From NCBI GenBank assembly GCA_035712245.1, contig DASTBC010000146.1, positions 1-35,087 of the forward strand: a stretch of DNA of 35,087 nucleotides, given 5' to 3'. Source of the stretch: Candidatus Eisenbacteria bacterium. GTDB taxonomy: Bacteria; Eisenbacteria; RBG-16-71-46; SZUA-252. Positions within the stretch are counted from its first letter, which is position 1. Every line of letters begins with the position of its first letter. The position numbers were made by a program, and so were the translations under genes. Shown here one piece after another: positions 1 through 12,720 of this stretch. A model generated the notes under the pieces. The model ran no database searches, had not been told where the DNA came from, and saw only the letters and a program-made list of their open reading frames with translations.

Positions 1-1
1 C

Positions 2-289
2 GACAGGCGCCGCATTCCCACGAGGCGAAGAAGCGTCTACAAGGACGGCGCGAGGAAGATCGTGCCCGCGGCCTATCTCTCGAACCGGCCGCGCGGAAGT
101 TGGAAGCAATCGGTGGAACGCGGATTGCTGCTCGCTCCGAATGCGGCCAACGCCCTCCAGGAGGGGCCCGGCGGGCAGTTCGGCGAGATGCGAACGATGA
201 TGCAGTACCTCTTCCAGAGCTTCAACGCGCGCGGGGATGCCAGGCCCTACAAGGCCGGCGTCAAGGAAGCCGCGGTCGAGCAAGGTTAA
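2..289 (+). CDS. C-terminal part of an unknown protein (open at left edge)
   Basis: The frame is open from base 2 to a TAA stop at 287-289, so at least 95 residues of a C-terminus are present and the true start lies outside the window. A GTG at 62 could start a 75-residue protein, but no good ribosome-binding site precedes it and the frame upstream stays open. The N-terminal part is very basic, followed by a G/P/N-rich middle with GGQFGEMR and a helical segment. I do not recognise the family. The gene points at the lanthipeptide-like locus and is separated from it by the hairpin at 313-340. Confidence 0.5.
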   Translation, partial: DRRRIPTRRRSVYKDGARKIVPAAYLSNRPRGSWKQSVERGLLLAPNAANALQEGPGGQFGEMRTMMQYLFQSFNARGDARPYKAGVKEAAVEQG

Positions 290-410: not shown

Positions 411-626
411 TCAGCACTCCAGCGTCGCGTCACACGTTTCGTGGCACGTCTCGTCGCAAGTGAGGTCGCATGTCCCCCCACACGAGAACTGGCACGTACA
501 ATTGGTGAGTCCCTGCGACTTCGTGCCAAGATCGATCGTTCCGCCGCGCGCCTGGCCCGCGAGCTCCGTCGAGAGCTGCCAAACGGTAGTCTTCCGGAGA
601 TGGATCTTTCGGGACCGTAGATTCAA
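411..626 (-). CDS. lanA: Lanthipeptide-like RiPP precursor peptide (71 aa)
   Basis: The product is a probable substrate of the LanC encoded just upstream. I chose the TTG at 624-626 because AAGGAG (633-638) sits 6 bases before it; an ATG at 663-665 in the same frame has no such site. From the TTG, residues 7-18 (KIHLRKTTVWQL) resemble the leader pattern K-x-x-L-x-K-x-T-x-x-x-L of many class I lanthipeptide precursors, and a Gly-Gly at 28-29 is a likely cleavage site for a C39 peptidase. The 42-residue core has eight Cys (43, 45, 49, 53, 57, 61, 65, 71) and eleven Ser/Thr. From residue 48 it runs SC, TC, TC, TC, TC, each four residues apart. The match to lanthipeptides is by pattern; a metal-binding Cys-rich peptide is the alternative. 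Confidence 0.7.
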   Translation of the reverse strand: MNLRSRKIHLRKTTVWQLSTELAGQARGGTIDLGTKSQGLTNCTCQFSCGGTCDLTCDETCHETCDATLEC

Positions 627-694
627 GGTACGCTCCTTTCCTGCCGGGGGCATGTAGGCCAGCATGACACGGAGGTCACCTGGCAGGCTGACAT
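623..694 (-). CDS. 23-codon mini-ORF translationally coupled to the precursor
   Basis: An ATG at 692-694 is preceded by AGGAGG (702-707) with 7-base spacing, one of the best ribosome-binding sites in the window. It encodes a 23-residue peptide with three Cys (4, 11, 15) and several Ser/Thr. Its TGA stop (623-625) overlaps the TTG start of the precursor (624-626) as TTGA, so ribosomes ending here could restart on the precursor. It could be a leader peptide that tunes precursor translation, a second tiny peptide product, or chance. It has no recognisable leader of its own. Confidence 0.4.
   Translation of the reverse strand: MSACQVTSVSCWPTCPRQERSVP
633..638 (-). promoter_or_regulatory. Ribosome-binding site that fixes the TTG start of the precursor
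   Basis: On the minus strand AAGGAG lies 6 bases before TTG 624-626. It is the only good Shine-Dalgarno sequence near the candidate starts, and it places the start at the leader motif instead of 13 codons upstream. Confidence 0.6.
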
Positions 695-701
695 GTCGGA
701 A

Positions 702-707
702 CCTCCT
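702..707 (-). promoter_or_regulatory. Near-ideal ribosome-binding site of the mini-ORF
   Basis: AGGAGG on the minus strand is 7 bases before ATG 692-694. It lies in the gap between the lanC stop (759) and the precursor, where a coding start would be expected. Confidence 0.5.
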
Positions 708-758
708 ATGTTGCCTGGTACGATGGATCGAAACCCGTCTTGTCGCGCGGCCCTCCTT

Positions 759-2021
759 TCAGCGAACCGGGGAGATCGATAGGAAGCGATCCCAACTCGG
801 CTCACGGTCCCCGGCGGCGGCCAGAAGGGCGAGTCCAATCCCGGATGAGCCTTCCAGGAGTCCAGCCATTGCCTGCCAATGCGGATCGGGATCGTGTCTC
901 CAGGTCGCGAACCTGCCCGGCCCGATCCCGTCCACCCTCATGTCCAGCGTGACATCGAACCAGTAGGCAGCTGCCTTCAAGAACGCTTCATCACCCGTAG
1001 CCTGGTAGAAGCGGTTGAAGATATGCCCCACTCCTGCGGTCCCATGGCAGAGAGCGCAGTCGACGTTCCGGCTTATTTCGCGGGTCAGCGTGCTGGCTCG
1101 TCGCACGATGGAAACGGCCTCCTCGCTCCATTCGGAGCGATCCGTCAGCTGACCGGCCACGTAGAGCCCCGACGCGACTCCAAGGTCTCCGTAGCACCAG
1201 GCGAGTCTGGCACCCGGCGGGCTCGGGTTGCCGTTCAACGTGCCCGGGAAGGAGGTGGCGCTGTCACCGGGCCATCGCTGGGCGAGTCCCCAGCGCACCG
1301 AACCCTCGAGGAGTTCCTTGGAGACGCGAGGCTTGACCTGCCGGGCGAGCGTCTGCGCGAGAAGCACCCAAACTCCTGGCATTCCGTGCGACAGGCCCAT
1401 GTTGTAGTAGCCGTTCGGTGATCGCTCCCGCTGCCACGGCGGAAGGAGCTCCGGCGTGGTGTGCCAGCGAATTCCGTCAGGGACCCGCTCCGCGCGCTGC
1501 TCGAAGAAGTCGACGATGAGCTCCAGCGCTTGGACCGCGCGTGGATGCGGCCAGCGCTCCAGTGCGTAGAGTCCCCATCCGGCGACGCCGCCGATCAGGT
1601 CATAGTGGGCGGGATCCTTGATGGTCCTCAAGCATTCGAGTAGGGCTTCCTCCAGATCCTCATGGGATCCGCCGTCCTCGTCGCCGGCTTGGTCCTTCGC
1701 GGACAGGAACGCCGTGGCCCAGCCGACGCCCGTGAAACCGCCGTAGAGGCTGGGCGTGGGATATGGGGAATTGGCAAGCGCATCGATCGCTGCGTTCCAG
1801 TGGCGGTCACGGAGTGACTCGAATTCGCGCCCGGGCCACCGCTGGGCCAGCTCGTCATAGAAGATCGCGAGACCGGAGCTGCCACCGGCGAGGCCGTACG
1901 AGATCCGCTCGGGAGCCCATGTCTCTTCCTGAAGCGCGTCCGCGATCTCGAGAACAGCCTTCTCGGCGTTCGCGGCGATCTCGTCGGTGAGGATTGGTTT
2001 CCAGGAAATCGTAACGGCCAC
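759..2021 (-). CDS. lanC: LanC family lanthionine cyclase
   Basis: LanC enzymes are zinc proteins that add Cys thiols to dehydrated Ser/Thr to form lanthionine rings. The protein is 420 residues from a GTG at 2019-2021, which has GAGG 7 bases upstream. A TTG at 2049-2051 in the same frame, with a weaker site, is the alternative. Family motifs are visible in order: GLSHGMPG near 209-216, WCYG near 275-278 and CALCHGTAG near 322-330. C276, C325 and H326 match the zinc ligands of NisC-type cyclases. The length fits a stand-alone LanC, not a LanM or LanKC fusion. It has its own promoter (2136-2164) and lies upstream of the mini-ORF and precursor in one likely transcript. No LanB, LanM, transporter or protease gene is in the window. 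Confidence 0.9.
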   Translation of the reverse strand: MAVTISWKPILTDEIAANAEKAVLEIADALQEETWAPERISYGLAGGSSGLAIFYDELAQRWPGREFESLRDRHWNAAIDALANSPYPTPSLYGGFTGVGWATAFLSAKDQAGDEDGGSHEDLEEALLECLRTIKDPAHYDLIGGVAGWGLYALERWPHPRAVQALELIVDFFEQRAERVPDGIRWHTTPELLPPWQRERSPNGYYNMGLSHGMPGVWVLLAQTLARQVKPRVSKELLEGSVRWGLAQRWPGDSATSFPGTLNGNPSPPGARLAWCYGDLGVASGLYVAGQLTDRSEWSEEAVSIVRRASTLTREISRNVDCALCHGTAGVGHIFNRFYQATGDEAFLKAAAYWFDVTLDMRVDGIGPGRFATWRHDPDPHWQAMAGLLEGSSGIGLALLAAAGDREPSWDRFLSISPVR

Positions 2022-2135
2022 GTCCTGTCCTCGCACCATTCGGAGGTCCAAGGGCTCGGTTCCTCAATACCGATCAGGATCGTCATGAACTCGTTGCATG
2101 CGACCGGTATGCGGGATTGTGAGGATGATCCCTCG

Positions 2136-2164
2136 ACCATAGGGCTGCCTAGAAGGCCTGTCAA
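2136..2164 (-). promoter_or_regulatory. Promoter of lanC: TTGACA-17-TATGGT
   Basis: On the minus strand a perfect -35 box TTGACA (2159-2164) is followed after exactly 17 bases by TATGGT (2136-2141). Transcription would start near 2129, giving an untranslated leader of about 100 bases before lanC. This makes the lanthipeptide-like locus an independent unit, although blaI-blaR1 lies upstream on the same strand. Confidence 0.6.
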
Positions 2165-2230
2165 CGGCGGCTACAGCAGCGCGTGGGTCGTGCGAACTCT
2201 CGCGATTCCCCTGCGGAACCCTGCTCGCCT

Positions 2231-3898
2231 CTAGAGCTTACGCGCCACACCCCTTCGCACGGCATCCTCCGCGATCCGCCGGAGCTGGCCGCGTAGCTCG
2301 AGCTCCTGCCGTTCCCACTCCGGGCGCACGGCTTCACGGCGCTCCGTGACCGCCTCCATCTGACGTGAGATCTCCTCCTGCTGCCGGGCGAGAGGCTCCC
2401 GCTCGCGCTCGATCTCCATGCGGGACCGCTCGATCTCCTGCAGGCGACGCTGGAGCTCGGCCTGTGACTTCTTGCCGCTGTCGCGGTCCTCCTCGAGTGC
2501 CTCCCGATCCTCTTCGAGCTGCATCGTGCGGTGTTCGAGACGCTCGACCTTCGGTTGGAGCCGCTCCATGCGTCCGTGTAGAAGCTCCAGGTCGTGATCG
2601 AAGTCCTCCAGCATCCGCCTTTGAAGCTCGTCCTGCTTCTGTAGGACCGCTCGTACGGACGCCAGGGTCTCGGGATCGTTCACGCCGTACTGCGTGCGGT
2701 CCAGACGGAACCACCAGATCATGCCGCCGCCCATGCGCTTCTGGGCCGCCTGCGCGCGCTCGTGGTCGTTGTAGCCGCCGCCCATCTTCATGGCGCCGCT
2801 CATCGTGTTGCCCCCGGGCTGGACGAGGAGGTACGCGAAGCGCTCGATCTCGAGCTCGGCCGGCGACTTCGGGGTTCCCTTGTCCTCGCGGGAATCACGG
2901 TCGTCGTGGGCGTGCAGGGTGAGTGGAGCGAGACTCAGGACTGCGACGGCGATGAGGATGGCGCCGGCGATCCGGCCCCAGGTCGACGAATGGGAATCCA
3001 GCACGAGCAACCTCCGAAGAAGCGCGCTTCGCGTGGGGGAGCCACACGAGGCTGTCGAGGGAATGGGTCGAGACGCCACGCCGAAGTGAACCAGAAGCTC
3101 GCCATAGGAGCGCGGGGAAGCCTGAGTCCGATGCAGCGCCATCGCGTCGCACGCCTCCTCCCGGGCCTGCCCGTACTCGCGCACGCTCCAGCGGGCCAGG
3201 GGATGGAACCAGAAGAGCACCTCCGTTGCGGCGGGTAGCCAGCCGAGGAGGAGGTCACGGCGCGCCACGTGCGCGCACTCGTGCGCGAGGACGAGATGCC
3301 GGGCGTGCGACGGAAGCTCCCCGTATCCGGCCGGAAGCAGGATCCGGGGCATCCATCCCGCCAGGGTCACCGGCACGTCGAGTTCCGCCGTGACCCGGAC
3401 CTCCGGCTGCTTGCGGCGCGATCGGCCGCATCGCAGGACCAGCGCTTCCTCCGGGTCGGGATCGTACGGCTCCGCCGCCTTCCAGATTCCCTCGATCCGA
3501 CGAAGAGCACGGAGATGAAGAACCACGGCCAGAGCGACCCCCAGGAGCCAAGCGGCCAGCACGAGAAGAGCCAGGGATCCGGCAACGGTTCGAGGCGCTG
3601 CTGGAAGGATCTGGCTCGAGATCTGGTGGGCCGCGACTCCCGTCTGCGCGGCGACGATTCTCGTGGGAGGCGCGACGGAGGTGATGGCCGGCGGATTCTC
3701 GGAGAAGGGGAGCACGATCCGGTGAGCGGGGATGGCGGCCGTGAGGAACTGCGCGGCCACGAGCCACCAGATCCACGCGCGCCGCGAGGCCGGCACCCGG
3801 TTCCGCGCGAAGATCAACAGGAGCCACGCGACAGTGGTGGCGATGCCACCCGCGACCGACGCTCGCAGGAGCGCGTCCAGCAGGTTCGAAGGAGTCAT
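2231..3898 (-). CDS. BlaR1/MecR1-like M56 family membrane metallopeptidase with long coiled-coil tail
   Basis: This is a membrane zinc protease that probably inactivates the partner repressor when a signal is sensed. The 555 residues show hydrophobic segments near 15-32, 41-60, 105-130 and 303-325. The zinc motif HECAH is at 206-210, and a conserved ExxxxEEACD stretch is near 241-251. After the last membrane segment there is no penicillin-binding sensor domain as in true BlaR1. Residues from about 330 hold a short Gly/Met-rich piece and then a highly charged E/R/Q-rich coiled coil (about 420-535). The start overlaps the repressor stop as ATGA (3895-3898), so the two genes are translationally coupled. 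The natural signal is unknown and probably not a beta-lactam. Confidence 0.85.
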   Translation of the reverse strand: MTPSNLLDALLRASVAGGIATTVAWLLLIFARNRVPASRRAWIWWLVAAQFLTAAIPAHRIVLPFSENPPAITSVAPPTRIVAAQTGVAAHQISSQILPAAPRTVAGSLALLVLAAWLLGVALAVVLHLRALRRIEGIWKAAEPYDPDPEEALVLRCGRSRRKQPEVRVTAELDVPVTLAGWMPRILLPAGYGELPSHARHLVLAHECAHVARRDLLLGWLPAATEVLFWFHPLARWSVREYGQAREEACDAMALHRTQASPRSYGELLVHFGVASRPIPSTASCGSPTRSALLRRLLVLDSHSSTWGRIAGAILIAVAVLSLAPLTLHAHDDRDSREDKGTPKSPAELEIERFAYLLVQPGGNTMSGAMKMGGGYNDHERAQAAQKRMGGGMIWWFRLDRTQYGVNDPETLASVRAVLQKQDELQRRMLEDFDHDLELLHGRMERLQPKVERLEHRTMQLEEDREALEEDRDSGKKSQAELQRRLQEIERSRMEIEREREPLARQQEEISRQMEAVTERREAVRPEWERQELELRGQLRRIAEDAVRRGVARKL

Positions 3899-4284
3899 GA
3901 CGTCCTCCTCTTCCGCTCGGTCAGCGCCCGGACGGCACGGTTCAGCTCGGCGAGCTCCTCGTCACTCACGCTCGTTCGCTCGGAGAGATAGGCCGCGAAG
4001 GGGGAGATGGACCCACCGAGGGCGCGATCCACGAACTGGCCGACCGAGCGGCGCATGGTCTCGACGTGTCCCTCGAGGGCGCGGTAGACATAGATTCCGT
4101 CCTGCTTGCGCCGCGCCACGTGCCCCTTGCGGCGAAGCCTCTCGAGAATGGTGAGCACCGTCGTGCGGGCGAGGTTTCGTGGAGCGCCGAATCCCTCCCA
4201 GAGGCTCGCGGCCGTGAGGGGACCCTGCTGGGCGAGGTGGAGAAGACAGTCCAGCTCCTGGTTGCTGGTCGGGCGTGGCGGCAT
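3895..4284 (-). CDS. BlaI/MecI family transcriptional repressor
   Basis: This is a 129-residue winged-helix DNA-binding protein. The N-terminal half has the BlaI pattern (QELDCLLHLAQQGPLTAASLW, then TTVLTILERLRRKGHVARRK with a basic wing and YVYRAL), and the C-terminal half is helical for dimerisation. AGGAGG stands before the ATG. Such repressors bind palindromes containing GACTACA/TGTAGTC and are cut by the partner M56 protease. Two such sites lie directly upstream (4299-4314, 4332-4347), so the operon should be autoregulated. Confidence 0.9.
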   Translation of the reverse strand: MPPRPTSNQELDCLLHLAQQGPLTAASLWEGFGAPRNLARTTVLTILERLRRKGHVARRKQDGIYVYRALEGHVETMRRSVGQFVDRALGGSISPFAAYLSERTSVSDEELAELNRAVRALTERKRRTS

Positions 4285-4298
4285 CGGTCCTCCTGGAT

Positions 4299-4314
4299 GA
4301 CTACAAACGTCGAC
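4299..4314. promoter_or_regulatory. Candidate BlaI-type operator 1 (imperfect)
   Basis: The 16-bp GACTACAAACGTCGAC has a perfect left half-site and a right half differing from GTAGTC at two positions. It is 15 bp before the repressor start, between promoter and ribosome-binding site. Confidence 0.5.
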
Positions 4315-4331
4315 TAGCAGAGCATGCCGTG

Positions 4332-4347
4332 GACTACAGTCGTAGTC
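4332..4347. promoter_or_regulatory. Candidate BlaI-type operator 2 (perfect palindrome) overlapping a -35 box
   Basis: GACTACAGTCGTAGTC is a perfect inverted repeat (6-bp arms, 4-bp centre). It matches the GACTACA-type half-site known for BlaI-family repressors of high-GC bacteria. On the minus strand it overlaps TTGACT (4344-4349), a good -35 box for the blaI-blaR1 promoter. The start-to-start distance to operator 1 is 33 bp, three helical turns, so dimers could bind on the same face. Confidence 0.65.
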
Positions 4348-4399
4348 AACCGGAAACTTTGGACTCGATGCCCGCTGGGTACAGCGCTAGCCTATCCCC

Positions 4400-4924
4400 A
4401 TGCCACAGGGTGAGTTCTCGCTGCGCTTCCCGGAGCGCGACCTGGAACGATGGGCGTCACGTTTTCCCGACCGGGAAGGGGACCACCGGATTGCGGGCAG
4501 CCTCCGCGCGGCCGTGAGGGAGCGCGGTCATCTCACGCGCCGCGAGTTCGTCGAGATCTGCGCCTGGAAGACGCCCCGGTCGAAGCCGCATTGCGCAAAG
4601 AACACGTCCCGTGGGATCCGCACGCTCACGGCGGCCGCGCTCGCGACTTCGGACGACAGGGTCAAGATGGACCTGCTCCGCCTGCTAGAGGGGGTCGAGT
4701 GGCCCACCGCGTCGACGATACTCCACTTCTGCGACGAGCGGCCCTATCCCATCCTCGACGTCCGAGCCGTCTGGTCGCTCGGGTTCAGCCGGCCGCCGAG
4801 CTACACGATGGAGTTCTGGCTCGCCTACGTCGCGTTCACGAGGGGATTGGCGAAGCGATCGGGGCTCTCCATGCGAGCCGTCGACCAGGCGCTCTGGCAG
4901 TACTCGAAGGAGCGGCAGAAATAG
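4400..4924 (+). CDS. Conserved hypothetical protein with DNA-glycosylase-like helical pattern
   Basis: The protein has 174 residues from ATG 4400. The middle part (about 85-125) reads KMDLLRLLEGVEWPTASTIL followed by PYPILDVRAVWSLG. This resembles the helix-hairpin-helix turn and the conserved Asp-containing segment of HhH-type DNA glycosylases, but I see no iron-sulfur Cys cluster and cannot name a substrate. The C-terminus ends with the helix RAVDQALWQYSKE. It is divergent from blaI and converges on the nitroreductase gene. The family assignment is inference; that it is a real gene is well supported by composition and motif density. Confidence 0.7.
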   Translation: MPQGEFSLRFPERDLERWASRFPDREGDHRIAGSLRAAVRERGHLTRREFVEICAWKTPRSKPHCAKNTSRGIRTLTAAALATSDDRVKMDLLRLLEGVEWPTASTILHFCDERPYPILDVRAVWSLGFSRPPSYTMEFWLAYVAFTRGLAKRSGLSMRAVDQALWQYSKERQK

Positions 4925-4947
4925 GAGCGCCGTGTCCGCGCCGCCGG

Positions 4948-5730
4948 TCAAGGCAGGAAGTGCTTCGACTCCAGGAGTGCTCTGAGCTTCTCCGAGTCCG
5001 CGCGAAACACCTCGGGGTCGTACTTGGCCTCGCTCGTGTAGAACTGGGCGAGCGAGGTGATGCCCAGCTCCTCCACCTTCGCCTTCAGCTCCGGGTGCGC
5101 CATGTACCGCGCCCATCCCTTGACCTCTCGCTGCTCGTAGATCGACTCCAACTCGTCGCCCTCGGCGCGGTGATAACGCTCCTCGTGGAGGAAGGCACGG
5201 AGCGGCAGCCGGTCGCGCTTGGGAGGATCCTCCGCCGGGTAGCCCACCACGATCGTCGTCACCGGGAGACACGTGTCCGGAAGCTCGAGAAACGCGGCGA
5301 TCTCGGTCATGGAATGGAGCGTCGTGCCCATGTAGCAGATTCCGAGCCCCTGGGCCTCGAAGCCGAGGCAGACCGACTGGGACAGGATCATCGCGTCGAA
5401 CGCGGCGACGTGATATCCGATGAAGTTGTCGAAGTTGTCTCGCGCGCCCCGAAGCCTCAGCCAATCCCGGGTGCGGCGCCAATCCGCGCAGAAGGTGACG
5501 AGGAGCGGCGCCTGGAGCACCATGTCCTGCTCGAAATGGAGCGTGTAGAGGTGGCGCTTCCGATCGGGATCCCGCGTGAGCACCATCGAGATCGCGTTGA
5601 GATTGCCCGAAGACGAGGACCCGGCGATCGCGTCGCCGAGGACCTGCTCGACGAGCGCCTGCGGCACCGGGTCGGGCTTGTACCGGCGGATGGAGCGGTG
5701 GTGATTCAGGAGCGCGGACAGATCGGTCAT
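4948..5730 (-). CDS. NAD(P)H-dependent nitroreductase family protein (FMN)
   Basis: This is a 260-residue flavoprotein of the nitroreductase superfamily, closest in pattern to the NfsA/FRP group. It reduces nitro compounds, quinones or flavins with NAD(P)H. Visible features are the N-terminal HHRSIRRYKPDPVP segment that contacts FMN phosphate, GSSSSGNLNA near 36-45, the central SQSVCLGFEAQGLGICYMG stretch, and VVGYPAE. The ATG at 5728-5730 was chosen because the family motif begins about ten residues later; the same frame stays open upstream but with unlike composition. It stands alone, convergent with the hypothetical gene at 4400-4924. Confidence 0.85.
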   Translation of the reverse strand: MTDLSALLNHHRSIRRYKPDPVPQALVEQVLGDAIAGSSSSGNLNAISMVLTRDPDRKRHLYTLHFEQDMVLQAPLLVTFCADWRRTRDWLRLRGARDNFDNFIGYHVAAFDAMILSQSVCLGFEAQGLGICYMGTTLHSMTEIAAFLELPDTCLPVTTIVVGYPAEDPPKRDRLPLRAFLHEERYHRAEGDELESIYEQREVKGWARYMAHPELKAKVEELGITSLAQFYTSEAKYDPEVFRADSEKLRALLESKHFLP

Positions 5731-5860
5731 GGGGGTTCCCGTGGAGGTGGACTCGCCGCGTTCGCGGCTGGCGGTCGGCGCGCATCGGCTCCGCTCGGAA
5801 ACGTATCCTACTTTGGATTGAATTGTCTGATGGCAACCTTCTTGCAGTTCCTGCCGTGTC

Positions 5861-6964
5861 ATGGCTTGCCGCGGCAGGAATACGATCGCGCGGACGATCG
5901 GTGTTGCGCTTTGGCTCGCCTGTTCGCTCGGGCTGCACGGGTGCTCCTCCGACGCGCCGCCCACCCGCCCCGGCGATGCGCCGAATTCAGGCGAGCCATC
6001 TCCCAAACCCGGAGGGGCCGCCCTCGACACGGTCGCCCTGCTCGAGGACTTCTCGTCCCGTCAGGTGTTTCCCTCCAACAACTGGTGGAACCTCGACATC
6101 TCCGGCGCCCCCGTCGATCCCCAGTCCCAGGCCATGATCGACTGGATCAGTGGGAGGACGCCGCAAAATCCCACCGCCACGCGGAGAGTCCATCCCGACT
6201 TCGGACCTCCTCCCTATGGAGTTCCGTACATCGGCGTGGGTGCGGATCAGCCGCTCGTGCCGGTGACGTTCTCTCCGTACGGAAGCGAGAGCGATCCCGG
6301 AGCACCGGGGCGACCACCCGGGTATCCCATTCCGGACGCCGCGCGCACGCAGCCGAACTACATCGAAGGTGGAGTGCCGGGCGGAGGGTCGAGCGGGGAC
6401 CGGCACCTGATCCTGATCGACCGCGACCGCTGGCTGCTCTTCGAGACCTGGGCGACGCGCTGGGATGCGACGGACAACCGGTGGGAGGCCGGCTCGGGCG
6501 CCACGTTCGATCTCGCGAGCAATGCGCGTCGTCCGGAGGGCTGGACCTCGGCGGATGCCGCGGGCCTTGCGATCTTCCCGGGGCTCGTGCGGCGTGACGA
6601 GGTCGTCTCGCCGGATCCCATCACGCACGCGTTCCGCGTCACGGTGCGCGCGACGAACGGATCCGTCTGGCCCGCGTCGCATGAGGCGGGAAACACGGCG
6701 GGTGCTCCGCCCATGGGCGCTCGCCTCCGGCTCAAAGCGTCCGTGAACATCACGGGATATCCGGCCGAGGTTCGGAAGGTCTTCCAGGCGATGAAGACCT
6801 ACGGCCTGATCGTGGCGGACAACGGATCCGACATGTACGTCACGGGCACCATGGATCCGGGCTGGGACAACGACATCCTGAATCCGGCGTTCCACTCCCT
6901 CGATGCGGACGACTTCGAGGTGATCCAGCTGGGCTGGGGCGCCGACGTGACCGGCGTGCCCTGA
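5861..6964 (+). CDS. Secreted lipoprotein of an uncharacterised family
   Basis: The N-terminus has a signal peptide with a lipobox (L-H-G-C, Cys28), then a Pro/Gly/Ser linker to about residue 55. The globular part starts with VFPSNNWWNLDIS and includes HPDFG, a Gly-Pro-rich region near 135-150, GDRHLILIDRD, SGATFDLASN, TSADAAGLAIFPGLVRRDEV, PPMGARLRLK and a closing KTYGLIVADNGSDMYVTG segment. I recognise this motif series as a widespread conserved hypothetical family but know no established function; a carbohydrate-related extracytoplasmic role is possible. The start lacks a strong ribosome-binding site. The 130-bp gap to the divergent nitroreductase gene must hold both promoters; I could not pick clear boxes. 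Confidence 0.75.
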   Translation: MACRGRNTIARTIGVALWLACSLGLHGCSSDAPPTRPGDAPNSGEPSPKPGGAALDTVALLEDFSSRQVFPSNNWWNLDISGAPVDPQSQAMIDWISGRTPQNPTATRRVHPDFGPPPYGVPYIGVGADQPLVPVTFSPYGSESDPGAPGRPPGYPIPDAARTQPNYIEGGVPGGGSSGDRHLILIDRDRWLLFETWATRWDATDNRWEAGSGATFDLASNARRPEGWTSADAAGLAIFPGLVRRDEVVSPDPITHAFRVTVRATNGSVWPASHEAGNTAGAPPMGARLRLKASVNITGYPAEVRKVFQAMKTYGLIVADNGSDMYVTGTMDPGWDNDILNPAFHSLDADDFEVIQLGWGADVTGVP

Positions 6965-6985
6965 CCACGCCGGTCGAGGTATCCG

Positions 6986-9283
6986 CTACCGCCCAGCCTG
7001 AGTTTCGAACCCCATCCTCTTCAAGATCACGGGCCAGCGCGGGTCGCTGTGCAGGGAACGCAGGCTGCGACGGACCTTCAGCTCGGTGAGCCCGCCGTCG
7101 TGCTGCTCGTACGCGCGGTCGAGCCACTCGAAGGCCGTGTCCGCTTCTCCGCGGATGGCGTGCACCTCCGCGATCTGGAACGCGGCGTCTCCGGCGTACT
7201 TCTCCGTCAGGGCTCGAAGTGCCTCGTCCGAAGCGCCGGGACGCCCGCCGGCCGCGTGAATGATCGCCAGCGCCCAGAGACGGTACCCTTCGTCCACCTC
7301 TTCCTGCGCCATGGTCAGGGCCTCCTTCTCGCGTCCCTGATCGAGCAGAACCAGCGCGAGGTAGGCGCGGACGTTCATCCGCTGAGGGGAGAGGTCCAGC
7401 GCGTCGCGGTACGCTGATTCCGCCTCGGCGAGCCGTCCCGCCGCATCGAAGGTAAGTCCCAGGACCGTATACGCGGCCGAGCTCACCGGATCCTGGTCGA
7501 GCCCTTGCTTGGCGAGCGCGATCGCTTCCTCGAACCGCCCGAGCGTTTGCATCAGCACGCTCGCTCCGACGAGAACGGAAGCGCTTCCGGGAGCGAGCTT
7601 CAAGGCTCTGGCGAACGACGCCTCCGCTCCTTTCCAGTCCCGGTCGTACGACATCCGGATCCGTGCGATCCGCGCGTGACCCTCGGCCAGATCGGGCTCG
7701 AGCTCAAGCCCACGCTCCACGGCCGCGCGCGCCCGTCCGTACCCCGCAGCCGTGGGAACCCAACCAAAGGCGGCCGGCACGCCGTACGCGGTGGAGAGCT
7801 CGACCCACCCCCTCGCGAACCGCGGGTCCAAAGCCAGTGCCCTCTCGAGATACTCGGTGGCGCGGAATACATCCTCACGGGAGCCCCGGGATAGAAGGTG
7901 ACGCGCCTGCAGATACAGTCGATGGGCCTCGACGCTCGTTGCGCGTCCCCGCGCCGCCTGAGCGACCTCGGCGGAGACGCCGGTGCTCGCCGTCTCGGCG
8001 GAGCCTTCCCCGAGCAACGCGGTTCGAAGCTCCCGGACCACACAGTTGGCGATCTCGTCTTGAATCGCGAAGATGTCGTCCAGTGTGTGTTCGTAGGTCC
8101 CGGACCAGATCTGGTAGCCATTGGCGGCCTTCACGAGCCGGACGGAGATTCGAACCCTGTTTCCTGCCTTGCGAACGCTTCCCTCGAGTAGGCTTTCCAC
8201 CCGGAGCTTGCGTCCGATCGCCGTGACGTCCTCCGTGGTGTCCCGAAACTGAAACGAGGATGTGCGCGCCGCCACCCGAACGCTGCGGATCTTGACGAGC
8301 GTGTTCAGGAGCTCGTCCGCGAGTCCATCGGAGAAGTACTCGTCTTCCTTGTCCGGGCTTCGATTCACGAACGGAAGCACGGCGATGGAAGCAACCTCGG
8401 TCGGCACCGGCACCGGGGTGAGGCGCACTCCGTGCTCCAGGAGGCTCCTGAGACGCCGGAGCTCGTTGCAGACTTCGAGCGCGCCCGCGAAACGGCCCTC
8501 CGGCTCCTTATCCAGGCAACGAACGACGACTTCCACCAGATCGGCCGGCAAATCGGGGCGGAGGTGCGCGAGGCCGGTCGGCTCGTCCCGAAGGATGGAG
8601 CTGGTCACGTCCGCGTAGGTCGCGCCACGGAACGGTCGCCGCCCCGAGGCGAGCTCGTAGAGGATCACACCGAACGAGAAGAGATCGGCCCGCGCATCCA
8701 CGGGGAGGCCCCGGATCTGCTCCGGAGCCATGTACGGAGCGGTTCCGACGACCTCCGCGCGACTGGTGAACGCGAGCGTTTCGTCCAGAGCCGACCCGGT
8801 CTCGGAGTCTGCCCGAGCGAGACCGAAGTCGAGCACCTTCACGCGGCCGTCGTTCGCGAGCATGATGTTTCCCGGCTTCAGATCGCGGTGGACGACTCCC
8901 TTCTCGTGGACGGCCACGAGAGCGTCCGCGGTCGCGATCGCGATGTCCAGCATTTGGGTCAGCGGCAATCCGCCGGGAGCGATGATTCGTGTGAGCGTCT
9001 CTCCTTCCACCAGCTCCATCGTGAGAAAGTGGAAGCCATCGCCGTCCTCGACGGAAAACACCGTGACCAGATTGGGGTGATTGAGTCCCGCGACGGTTCG
9101 AGCCTCGCGGTCGAGGCGCGCGGCGTGATCGCCTGAGGAAGCCACGGACGGAGGGAGGATCTTGATCGCGACGTCGCGGCCAAGGCGGGTGTCCCGCGCG
9201 CGATAGACCTCTCCCATCCCGCCGGCGCCCAGTGGGGAGAGGATCTGGTAGGCCCCGAGGCGGGTCCCGGGTGCCAGTGCCAT
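6986..9283 (-). CDS. Serine/threonine protein kinase fused to a TolB-N/FlgO-like domain and TPR repeats
   Basis: The protein has 765 residues. The N-terminal kinase domain (12-285) is intact: glycine loop GAGGMGEV at 19-26, Lys41, HRD at 132-134, DFG at 152-154 and APYMAPEQ in the activation segment. Next comes a domain beginning SIAVLPFVNRSPD with EYFSDGLADELLNTL (about 315-445), the module that follows kinase or adenylate-cyclase domains in many bacterial signal proteins. From about 465 to the end there are TPR helices. I see no membrane segment between kinase and repeats, so it is probably cytosolic. Its substrate cannot be read from the neighbours. It converges on the lipoprotein gene at 5861-6964. 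Confidence 0.92.
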   Translation of the reverse strand: MALAPGTRLGAYQILSPLGAGGMGEVYRARDTRLGRDVAIKILPPSVASSGDHAARLDREARTVAGLNHPNLVTVFSVEDGDGFHFLTMELVEGETLTRIIAPGGLPLTQMLDIAIATADALVAVHEKGVVHRDLKPGNIMLANDGRVKVLDFGLARADSETGSALDETLAFTSRAEVVGTAPYMAPEQIRGLPVDARADLFSFGVILYELASGRRPFRGATYADVTSSILRDEPTGLAHLRPDLPADLVEVVVRCLDKEPEGRFAGALEVCNELRRLRSLLEHGVRLTPVPVPTEVASIAVLPFVNRSPDKEDEYFSDGLADELLNTLVKIRSVRVAARTSSFQFRDTTEDVTAIGRKLRVESLLEGSVRKAGNRVRISVRLVKAANGYQIWSGTYEHTLDDIFAIQDEIANCVVRELRTALLGEGSAETASTGVSAEVAQAARGRATSVEAHRLYLQARHLLSRGSREDVFRATEYLERALALDPRFARGWVELSTAYGVPAAFGWVPTAAGYGRARAAVERGLELEPDLAEGHARIARIRMSYDRDWKGAEASFARALKLAPGSASVLVGASVLMQTLGRFEEAIALAKQGLDQDPVSSAAYTVLGLTFDAAGRLAEAESAYRDALDLSPQRMNVRAYLALVLLDQGREKEALTMAQEEVDEGYRLWALAIIHAAGGRPGASDEALRALTEKYAGDAAFQIAEVHAIRGEADTAFEWLDRAYEQHDGGLTELKVRRSLRSLHSDPRWPVILKRMGFETQAGR

Positions 9284-9335
9284 CGCATGAATGTAGTGCG
9301 GATCGGGTCGTGAGTCACGACAGGTTCGAGGAGGG

Positions 9336-9390
9336 TGTCACTGCCACATGGAAATGTCCTCCCTACCTGCTCTGTGAAATGTCCCCCTCC
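9336..9390. mobile_element. Possible insertion-sequence end (scar) with repeated GAAATGTCC
   Basis: TGTCACTGCCACATGGAAAT starts at 9336 and is followed by two copies of GAAATGTCC, at 9351-9359 and 9376-9384, 25 bp apart. The TGT start, CACATGGAAATGTCC and repeated GAAATGTCC resemble the terminal repeats of some IS481-like elements as I recall them. No transposase gene and no second end are present, so at most it is a scar. Together with 9338-9472 it fills the 205-bp gap between the kinase and the benzoyl-CoA operon. Confidence 0.35.
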
Positions 9391-9737: not shown

Positions 9738-10586
9738 TTACGCCGCGCCGCTTGCGGCCGGACGTGGCTCGCACGACGCTCCCGCGGCTTCCGGGCGGAG
9801 CCCCTCGAGCCTGCGGAGCCCGAGCCACGCGGCGCCCAGCGCCGGGACGAACTGCACCAGCTCGCTCGGCGGGACATTGACCCCGGCGTGGAGCTGCTCG
9901 CGCGCGACGCGGATCATGGTCTCGAAACGCAGGATGCCGCCGATGAGCGTGAACTCGGGCTCCATCTTGACGCGCCTCATGAGCTGGACGGACCGCCCCA
10001 CCAGAGAGACGATCGCTCCGTGCATGATGTCCGCGGGCGCGAGACCCTGCGACAGGTGATTGATCACCTCCGATTCGGCGAAGACGGCGCACACCCCCGA
10101 GATCGCCGGATACTCCTTGGACGTCGCCACGAGAGGACCGATCTCCTCGGTCGAATAGCCCATGTAGCGCGCGGTCTTCTCGAGGAACGCGCCCGTTCCG
10201 GCGGCGCACTTGTCGTTGAGCCGGAACGCCTTGACCTTGCCCCCCTCGCTGAGGCGGCTCGCCTTCATCGTCTGCCCGCCGACATCGAGGACGGTACGGG
10301 TTCCGGGAAAGAGGAACGTCGCGCCGCGCGCCGCGGCGGTGATGTCGGTGACGTGAGCGTCCGCGAACGCGGCCTGGTGGCGCCCGAAACCGGTGGCGAT
10401 CACGTAGGAGACGCCGGTGCGGGGCAGCGCCGCTCCATCCAGGGCTTGGCCGAGCGTCTCCCGAGCGGCCTCGGCCAGACGGAAGCCGGTAGGCGCCAGC
10501 GCGCGACCGAGGGCGACGCCGTCCTCCCGGAGGAGGATCGCCTTGGTGTAGGTGGAGCCGATGTCGATTCCGGCCGTGATTCTCAT
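9738..10586 (-). CDS. bcrD: Benzoyl-CoA reductase ATPase subunit D (BcrD/BzdQ-like)
   Basis: This is one of two ATPase subunits of ATP-dependent class I benzoyl-CoA reductase, coupling ATP hydrolysis to electron transfer for ring reduction. The 282 residues belong to the BadF/BadG/BcrA/BcrD (ASKHA) family. Phosphate-binding [10 protein letters not shown] is at 6-15, [10 protein letters not shown] is the second phosphate motif, and KCAAGTGAF and [10 protein letters not shown] hold the two Cys expected to bind the [4Fe-4S] cluster shared by the ATPase dimer. The start overlaps the bcrA stop as ATGA (10583-10586). The A/D assignment follows gene order and length; the pair could equally be called BzdP/BzdQ. 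Confidence 0.88.
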
Positions 10587-11401
10587 GAAGCGCTCCGGCG
10601 CGCGTGGGCCGGGACCCTTCCGGCGAGGATGTGGTCGAGCGCGAAGAGGGCCGCCCCCAGCGCCCCGATGTAGTGCGACTCCTCGCTCGTGTTCACACGC
10701 AGATTCAGCTCGCGCTGGAGCGAATCCACCATGGCCACGTTCCTCGCCACGCCGCCCGTGAACGTCACCTCCTCCTCGATTCCGGTCCGCCAGAGGAGCA
10801 TCACCGACCGGGACGCGCTCGATCGGTGGACGCCCAGGAGGATGTCCTCGATCTTCTTCCCCTTTCCGAGCCAGGAGAGGATCTCGGATTCGGCGAAGAC
10901 CGTGCACGTCGTGCTGATCTTCACGGGATTCTCTCCACGGAGCGCCGTGGGGCCGAGCTGGTCGAGATCGATGTGAAGCGCCGCCGCGGCCGCGCCGAGG
11001 AACCGGCCGGTGCCGGCCGCGCACTTGTCGTTCATGCAGAAGTCCTGGACCTCGCCGCGGGCCGAGACCCGGATCGCCTTCGTGTCCTGCCCGCCCATGT
11101 CCACGACGGTTCGCGTGCCGGGGAACATGTGGACGGCGCCCCGGCCATGGCAGCTGATCTCGGTCACCTGGGTGTTCCCGAACGTCACCTTGTAGCGGCC
11201 GTATCCGGTCCCGACAACGTACTCGACCTCCTCCTCGCGGATGTCCTTCCCGAGGAGCGATTCGCGAAACGCGTTCTCCGCGGCGCGGATGACGTTCGCG
11301 CCCGTATCCGTCAGCGCGCGGCCCACGATCTTCCCTTGCTCGTCGATCACGACCGCCTTCGTCTGCGTGGATCCAACGTCCACGCCCGCCGCGTATGCCA
11401 T
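10583..11401 (-). CDS. bcrA: Benzoyl-CoA reductase ATPase subunit A (BcrA/BzdP-like)
   Basis: This is the second ATPase/cluster subunit of the class I benzoyl-CoA reductase. It has 272 residues from ATG 11399-11401, with GGAGG 5 bases upstream. [36 protein letters not shown] and [19 protein letters not shown] are the family motifs, including both cluster Cys. It is short compared with Thauera-type BcrA (about 49 kDa); both ATPase subunits here are near 30 kDa, as in the Azoarcus Bzd-type enzyme. It starts 11 bases after bcrB. Confidence 0.88.
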
Positions 11402-11412
11402 GGAGCCCTCCG

Positions 11413-12720
11413 TCAGCCGTGCCGTGCCGATGCGATCTGGCGCCGCGACTCGATCGACTCGAAGAACGCGTCGATCCGGTTCTTGAGCTGAGCCTCGGAA
11501 ACCACCCGGCGATCCATCATGTCCGACTCGATGAAGAGGCTCGGCACGTCCCGCCGCTCCATGAGCGCGCGCCGGTTGTCCGCGAGGCCCGTGGACACGG
11601 TCCTGCAGCTCTTGATGGGATGGAAGACGACGCCGTCGACGTCGTATTCGTCGACCATACGGGCGAGCGCGTTCGTCGGGAAGAACATGCTGTCCATCGA
11701 GTCTCGCACGCCCAGGAGCAGCCCTTCCGCCAGGCTCTCGATGGGATCGTCCAGGTCGTACTGGAAACCCAGGTTCGACCCGCCGGAGGCGAACCAGAGG
11801 TAGGTCGAGTTGACGAACGTGCCCCCGTGCTCCGTGAAGAACTCCGTGAAGCGCCGGAAGATCGGATAGCAGGGCACCCCGACGAAGACGAGCCGGCAGC
11901 GCTCGTCGACGAGCGTTCCGATCCCGTTCGCCTGCTTCCACTCCATTTCCTCCACCAGCTCGTCGAAGTACGCGGCGCCCTCCGGCGCGCCGCGATAGCC
12001 GTTCGAGACTCCGAGGTAGATCGTCCCGTCCGAGAGCGCGTTGAACAGGGAGGGGCGGCTCCGGTTCAGCTCCAGCACGCGGTTCCACCCGCGGTTCATC
12101 CGGTTGGCATGGCCCAGGAACTCACGCAGGCGGTCCACGTCGAAGCGCGTTCCGGTGACGCCCTCGAGGACGGCGATCAGCTCCCGGAGCTGCGCGGCCA
12201 CGTAGGTTCGGTCGTTCTCGAAGTCGCGGTCGCCCCGGCCCGGAAGCGGGCCGTCGCTCCGAGAGCCGGGCACGTCGAGGACGCAGACGGGCACGCCGTA
12301 CATGCGCTCCCAGATCTCCGCCCACTTGATGTAGGTGTTGCACGCGTTCGTGAGCACCGCGATCTTCGGGCGCGGGATGCGCCCCATCGGGAGCCGTCCG
12401 TCCCTCCGCTGGGCCGCGATGTCGGCCTTCACGTAGCCGCAGATGTCCGGGGAATAGCCGAAGTCCTCGGCCTCGTTCAGGTACTCGTGGGCCACTTTCC
12501 GAACCGCGGTCTGGAGTGAGTTGATCTCGGGGAACACGAGGGGAAGGTCGAACGCGCGGAGGAGCTCTCCCAGGCTTCCCATCACGAAGACGTAGGCCGC
12601 TCCTCGTCCCTCCTCCGCGGCGCGCGTCAAGTCGTCGTACCAGACGCGGAAGAGGCGCGCTCCCTCGCGGTTGGCCCGACCGACGATCTCCGTGCTCGCT
12701 TGCTCCGGCAGGTGATTCAT
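11413..12720 (-). CDS. bcrB: Benzoyl-CoA reductase subunit B (BcrB/BzdO-like)
   Basis: This is a catalytic subunit of the benzoyl-CoA reductase BC module, of the 2-hydroxyglutaryl-CoA dehydratase D-component family. The 435 residues fit BcrB. Conserved Cys-containing stretches are visible: [29 protein letters not shown] and [13 protein letters not shown], giving the three Cys positions that hold a [4Fe-4S] cluster in this family. The substrate benzoyl-CoA is reduced to cyclohexa-1,5-diene-1-carbonyl-CoA by two single-electron steps. It lies 10 bases after bcrC and 11 before bcrA. Confidence 0.9.

What the first reader, a model, noticed from the sequence alone, without database searches (positions are those of the whole stretch)
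411..2164. Lanthipeptide-like locus with LanC and precursor but no dehydratase
LanC alone cannot make rings: a dehydratase (LanB, or the lyase/kinase part of LanM/LanKC) must first act on Ser/Thr. Here a full LanC with all three zinc ligands sits in one transcript with a precursor that has a class I-like leader and Gly-Gly site, and no dehydratase, transporter or protease is within 33 kb to the right. Either the partners are outside the left edge or encoded elsewhere, or the LanC does different chemistry.
Basis: partly seen in the sequence, partly recalled or inferred. Interest (0 to 1): 0.8.

Follow-up and report, generated by a model that had tools for sequence, protein, structure and literature searches.

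The report
Class I lanthipeptide cluster, contig-split
The apparently missing ring-making partner gene sits just past the edge of this assembled DNA piece, so this is an ordinary peptide-antibiotic-type gene cluster cut in two by the assembly, although its genome also carries three more matching precursor genes at scattered places.

Summary
The LanC gene (window 759-2051, -) and the Cys-rich precursor (411-626, -) are real. The missing dehydratase is an assembly effect. The window is a whole contig (C146) of a 312-contig genome. Its first 141 bases are identical to the reverse complement of the first 141 bases of contig C204, and that 141-mer occurs nowhere else in the bin. C204, placed left of base 1, carries a full LanB about 885 bases from the edge, a C39 peptidase-ABC exporter, a possible membrane-fusion protein, a second LanC (73% identical) and a second precursor. 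Distant relatives also have LanB next to LanC. Best reading: a standard class I lanthipeptide system.

The part worth keeping was not in the finding. A 29-residue leader profile hits exactly five places in the genome (E 4e-16 to 6e-18; next hit 0.35), on five contigs, including three with no other lanthipeptide gene seen nearby (C35, C198, C20). The genome holds one LanB, one C39 exporter and two LanCs. This suggests trans-acting enzymes with dispersed substrates, as in class II prochlorosins; inferred from sequence only. New member of a known kind.

The parts
1..141 (.). Contig-end overlap: identical to the reverse complement of bases 1-141 of contig C204, so C204 (reversed) continues to the left
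   Evidence: Longest suffix-prefix overlap is exactly 141 b; no other copy in the genome. On C204: LanB 1026-4406 (-), C39-ABC 4238-6439 (-), HlyD-like 6436-7290 (-), LanC2 7369-8661 (+), LanA1 532-816 (+).
137..289 (+). Fragment of a manganese catalase (N-terminal region only), probably a remnant; lies between LanA1 and LanA2
   Evidence: PF05067 E 5.6e-11 over profile positions 19-56 of 284, frame ends at 289.
411..626 (-). LanA2 precursor, 71 aa: 29-aa leader MNLRSRKIHLRKTTVWQLSTELAGQARGG, 42-aa core with 8 Cys and 11 Ser/Thr; probable start TTG 626
   Evidence: Leader profile E 1.7e-16 at 540-626, one of five such hits in the genome; Shine-Dalgarno AAAGGAG; core counts.
759..2051 (-). LanC1, stand-alone lanthionine cyclase; start codon uncertain (TTG 2051, ATG 2039 or GTG 2021)
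   Evidence: PF05147 E 1.1e-38; best solved relative MadC, 8byk; 73% identical to LanC2 on C204; dN 0.15, dS 0.94 against LanC2.
2136..2164 (-). Promoter-like site TTGACA-17-TATGGT upstream of LanC1
   Evidence: 10 of 12 consensus matches; mean 0.3 in shuffles.

Best explanation
This is the right-hand end of a class I lanthipeptide biosynthetic cluster split over two contigs. In window orientation the order is: LanC2 (-), HlyD-like (+), C39-ABC exporter LanT (+), LanB (+), LanA1 (-), Mn-catalase fragment (+), LanA2 (-), LanC1 (-). Mechanism by homology: LanB uses glutamyl-tRNA to dehydrate Ser/Thr in the cores of leader-bearing precursors. LanC1 and/or LanC2, with a Cys-Cys-His zinc site, add core Cys thiols to the dehydro residues to form (methyl)lanthionine rings. 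The C39 domain of LanT cuts after Gly-Gly and exports the product. Shown: the genes, the motifs, the contig-end overlap, selection on LanC, and the shared leaders. Inferred: the physical join, co-transcription, the chemistry and the product. Three further precursors with the same leader lie on other contigs and are probably modified in trans, because the assembly holds only one LanB and one C39 exporter.
For: Exact 141-base overlap of the two contig ends, unique in the bin. One LanB with both PF04738 (E 3e-148) and PF14028 (2e-60), 1126 aa, related by sequence to solved chains 9g04, 5ehk (lantibiotic dehydratase) and NisB 4wd9. C39-ABC exporter, the only C39 in the genome. LanC1 with the complete active-site set and purifying selection against LanC2 (dN/dS about 0.16). 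Both precursors share a 29-aa leader. LanB is adjacent to LanC in L014-L017 and L019, and LanB-LanT-LanC occur together in L020 and L021. Cores have near-equal Cys and Ser/Thr (8/11, 13/15, 10/14, 13/14).
Against: The join rests on one shared 141-mer. The assembler broke the contig there, so the graph branched, and another path is possible in principle. The right ends of C146 and C204 show no such overlap in the bin, so the overlap length could not be confirmed as a general feature of this assembly. No product is known. C39-type LanT is more typical of class II than of classic class I systems.
Confidence: 0.9

Rival explanations
1. LanC1-LanA2 is a separate satellite locus, not physically next to LanB, and the LanB cluster on C204 serves it in trans.
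For: Three other precursors with the same leader are on unlinked contigs, so trans modification is plausible in this genome. C204 has its own LanC2.
Against: The exact 141-base end-to-end overlap between the two contigs, with LanA1 and LanA2 then lying about 0.8 kb apart on the same strand.
Confidence: 0.07
2. LanC1 performs different chemistry without dehydration (for example thiol addition to another acceptor, as reported for LanC-like proteins).
For: No dehydratase on this contig; LanC1 also matches LANCL2 and LANCL1 sequences weakly.
Against: A full LanB is in the genome and abuts the contig. LanC1 keeps every bacterial cyclase active-site residue checked. It is closest to class I MadC (5.1e-30 versus 1.1e-08 for LANCL2) and is 73% identical to the LanC2 of the LanB cluster.
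Confidence: 0.02
3. The Cys-rich frame is not a lanthipeptide precursor, but for example a target of a radical SAM enzyme (thioether of another type) rather than of LanB/LanC.
For: The core weakly resembles the Cys-Xaa-Xaa-Xaa repeat radical SAM target family TIGR04117 (18.2 bits against a cut-off of 50, E 0.002). Core Cys follow one another at spacing 4 five times in a row.
Against: The score is far below cut-off and is driven by the Cys spacing. The other cores have irregular spacing. Leaders are shared with LanA1 inside the LanB/LanC cluster. Radical SAM genes were not searched for specifically.
Confidence: 0.04

Closest known systems
Class I lanthipeptide clusters (nisin NisABC-T; maddinglicin MadA/MadC)
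   Same: Full-length LanB, stand-alone LanC with Cys-Cys-His zinc site, leader-core precursor
   Different: Two LanCs and at least two precursors in one cluster; exporter carries a C39 peptidase; leader box RKLRLRKxT..DL instead of a nisin-type FNLD box; cores with 8-13 Cys
Gram-negative class I clusters with Gly-Gly leaders and C39 exporters (e.g. the Pedobacter locus L017)
   Same: LanC-LanB-C39 exporter together; leader KKLSLNKETIAKL...GG resembles RKLRLRKxTxRDL...GG
   Different: Only about 30% identity of LanB and LanC; two LanCs here; host not identified
Prochlorosins (class II, ProcM; reviewed in PMC12328550 and PMC11251773)
   Same: Conserved leader, diverse cores, precursors scattered over the genome with one set of enzymes
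   Different: Class I enzymes (LanB + LanC) rather than LanM; only five precursors; a different, short leader; cyclase zinc site is CCH, not the CCC reported for the promiscuous type

Membership tests
Class I lanthipeptide system | Full-length LanB (glutamylation and elimination domains) in the system | tested here: met
   PF04738 E 3.2e-148 and PF14028 E 2.1e-60 in one 1126-aa protein on abutting contig C204
Class I lanthipeptide system | Stand-alone LanC with Cys, Cys-His zinc ligands and acid-base residues | tested here: met
   C286, C335, H336, D151, H222, R282 in LanC1 (reference residues from PMC9889658)
Class I lanthipeptide system | Precursor with leader and Ser/Thr/Cys core | tested here: met
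   LanA1 and LanA2, 29-aa leaders, cores 13 Cys/15 Ser+Thr and 8/11
Class I lanthipeptide system | Genes clustered | tested here: met
   By contig-end overlap; not verified by reads
Class I lanthipeptide system | (Methyl)lanthionine in the product | not testable with these tools
   Needs mass spectrometry
Class II, III or IV lanthipeptide system | LanC domain fused to a kinase, lyase or dehydratase part (LanM/LanKC/LanL) | tested here: not met
   Only two PF05147 hits in the genome, both stand-alone, open frames 434 and 454 aa
Dispersed-precursor (prochlorosin-like) organisation | Several precursors with a common leader at unlinked loci, one modification enzyme set | tested here: met
   Five leader hits on five contigs (C204 and C146 abut, so four places as far as the contigs show), one LanB, one C39
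Dispersed-precursor (prochlorosin-like) organisation | Unlinked precursors are actually modified by the shared enzymes | not testable with these tools
   Needs co-expression or native mass spectrometry

The most novel reading that the evidence does not exclude
A class I counterpart of the prochlorosin system: one LanB and one C39 exporter serve five precursors at four separate genomic places, with two diverged LanC cyclases dividing the substrates, giving several Cys-dense, multi-ring peptides in an uncultured bacterial lineage.
Probability: 0.45. Interest if true: 0.5.

Novelty: new member of a known kind. Interest (0 to 1): 0.3.

Why it matters
It removes a false lead: no LanC without a dehydratase needs explaining here. 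It also shows how a contig edge can create one; Walker et al. 2020 (PMC7268733) met 381 unclassified cases within 3 kb of a contig end. If the five dispersed precursors are all modified, class I enzymes also support a scattered, one-enzyme-many-substrates layout best known from class II prochlorosins, with two cyclases that could be compared on the same substrates.

Tried and rejected
Different LanC chemistry: rejected, since LanB is present and the LanC active site is complete. Class II-IV synthetase elsewhere in the genome: none. Overlap as a chance or repeated element: rejected, the 141-mer has no other copy in the bin. As controls I checked the other ends of both contigs; neither overlaps another contig in the bin, so the assembler's k was not confirmed independently. 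The three other precursor contigs do not overlap each other or the cluster contigs at the ends examined (only one end each of C35 and C198 was compared). Same-genus and same-family genomes give no LanC and no precursor, so no close relative with an unbroken copy of the cluster could be used. Papers: no report found of dispersed class I precursors, but the open library is partial. Structure prediction was not run because the sequence families were clear.

Full report
What was claimed. A LanC gene and a precursor at 411-2164, with no dehydratase, transporter or protease, hence possibly unusual chemistry.

What is there. The minus-strand frame 759-2051 is a LanC (PF05147, E 1.1e-38). Its best solved relative is 8byk (E 5.1e-30), which is MadC, a class I cyclase (PMC9889658). 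The zinc ligands and acid-base residues named in that paper for NisC and MadC (Cys, Cys-His; Asp, His, Arg) are all present, at C286, C335-H336, D151, H222 and R282. The precursor frame downstream is real, but its start should be moved. TTG 626 is preceded by AAAGGAG and gives a 29-residue leader of the same length as four paralogues, each with its own purine-rich ribosome-binding-like site.

Why the dehydratase seemed absent. The window is the whole of contig C146 in a 312-contig assembly (3.54 Mb, 97% complete). Base 1 is therefore a contig end, not an arbitrary cut. The only LanB in the genome is on contig C204 (13,199 b). The first 141 bases of the window equal the reverse complement of the first 141 bases of C204, and this is the longest end overlap. 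The sequence has no other copy in the bin. A perfect end-to-end overlap of 141 bases is what MEGAHIT with maximum k = 141 leaves between neighbouring contigs (my knowledge; one unrelated public record found bears such a k141 name). I could not confirm k from other ends, since neither far end has a partner in the bin.

The joined cluster. In window orientation, left of base 1: LanC2 (-), an HlyD-like protein with no Pfam hit (+, so named only from its place and its single membrane-anchor-like stretch), a C39 peptidase-ABC exporter (+), LanB (+, stop about 885 b left of base 1) and LanA1 (-, from about -390 to -674). Then, inside the window: a Mn-catalase fragment (+, 137-289), LanA2 (-) and LanC1 (-). 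LanB has both domains of a class I dehydratase (PF04738, PF14028) and matches the solved chains 9g04, 5ehk and NisB. The C39 exporter is the only C39 protein in the genome. LanC1 and LanC2 are 73% identical, with dN 0.15 and dS 0.94, so both have been kept under purifying selection.

Relatives. Among 59 genomes searched, four besides the window's own carry a LanC match and none is in the same genus or family. In named or held relatives LanB lies beside LanC (L014, L015, L016, L017, L019) or LanB-LanT-LanC occur together (L020, L021). Class I organisation is thus the rule for this LanC family.

The unexpected part. Searching the genome with LanA1 found further precursors. A profile of the 29-residue leaders alone hits exactly five places, E 3.6e-16 to 5.5e-18, with the next hit at 0.35. 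The profile was built from these five, so the gap to the next hit, not the E-value itself, is the evidence; the single-sequence search found them independently (E 4e-5 or better). They are LanA1 (C204), LanA2 (window), LanA3 (C35, 98 aa), LanA4 (C198, 98 aa) and LanA5 (C20, cut by the contig end). The ungapped leader consensus is MxPRxRKLRLRKxTxRDLxxxDAxxARGG. The complete cores hold 8-13 Cys and 11-15 Ser/Thr, no leader has a Cys, and the cores do not align well. Genes near LanA3, LanA4 and LanA5 are unrelated (DinB-like, thiamin pyrophosphokinase, FG-GAP protein). With one LanB, one C39 exporter and no LanM/LanKC/LanL, trans modification of the scattered precursors is the natural inference, as in class II prochlorosins (PMC12328550, PMC11251773). 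It is not shown. None of the 58 other genomes searched has a leader hit better than E 0.006.

Limits. All functional statements are by homology. The ring pattern cannot be predicted from these cores. Bin contamination is low (0.52%), but contigs C35, C198 and C20 were assigned to this genome by binning; the shared leader is the only independent support. The precursors on C35, C198 and C20 lie near contig ends, so a closer linkage to one another cannot be fully excluded, although the ends examined do not overlap. The host was not identified.

Verdict. The finding is a contig-edge artefact on top of an ordinary class I lanthipeptide cluster. The dispersed precursor set is the part worth following.

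Noticed in passing
G000 C35:49266-49562 (+), C198:1456-1752 (+), C20:1-181 (-): Three additional precursors with the same 29-aa leader and different Cys-rich cores, with no other lanthipeptide gene seen nearby; the one on C20 is cut by the contig end.
   Followed up: yes
window 137-289 (+): N-terminal fragment of a Mn-catalase between the two precursors, probably a gene remnant; the contig break lies at its start.
   Followed up: partly
window 9335-9387 and C204:306-359: A 54-base near-repeat (89%) containing GGGACATTTC-like ends, one copy between LanA1 and the contig junction and one about 9 kb into the window; looks like a mobile-element remnant.
   Followed up: no
window 2231-4284 (-): BlaR1-like M56 peptidase with a long coiled C-terminal part next to a BlaI-like repressor, directly upstream of LanC1; could be a regulator of the cluster, untested.
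   Followed up: no
window 9738-12720 (-): Two BcrA/BadF-type activase frames and an HgdB-like subunit in a row, as judged by eye from the translations (benzoyl-CoA reductase / 2-hydroxyacyl-CoA dehydratase type).
   Followed up: no
window 411-540 (-): Core of LanA2 has Cys at a strict spacing of four (five intervals in a row) with Ser/Thr directly before six of eight Cys (shuffle p 0.002).
   Followed up: partly
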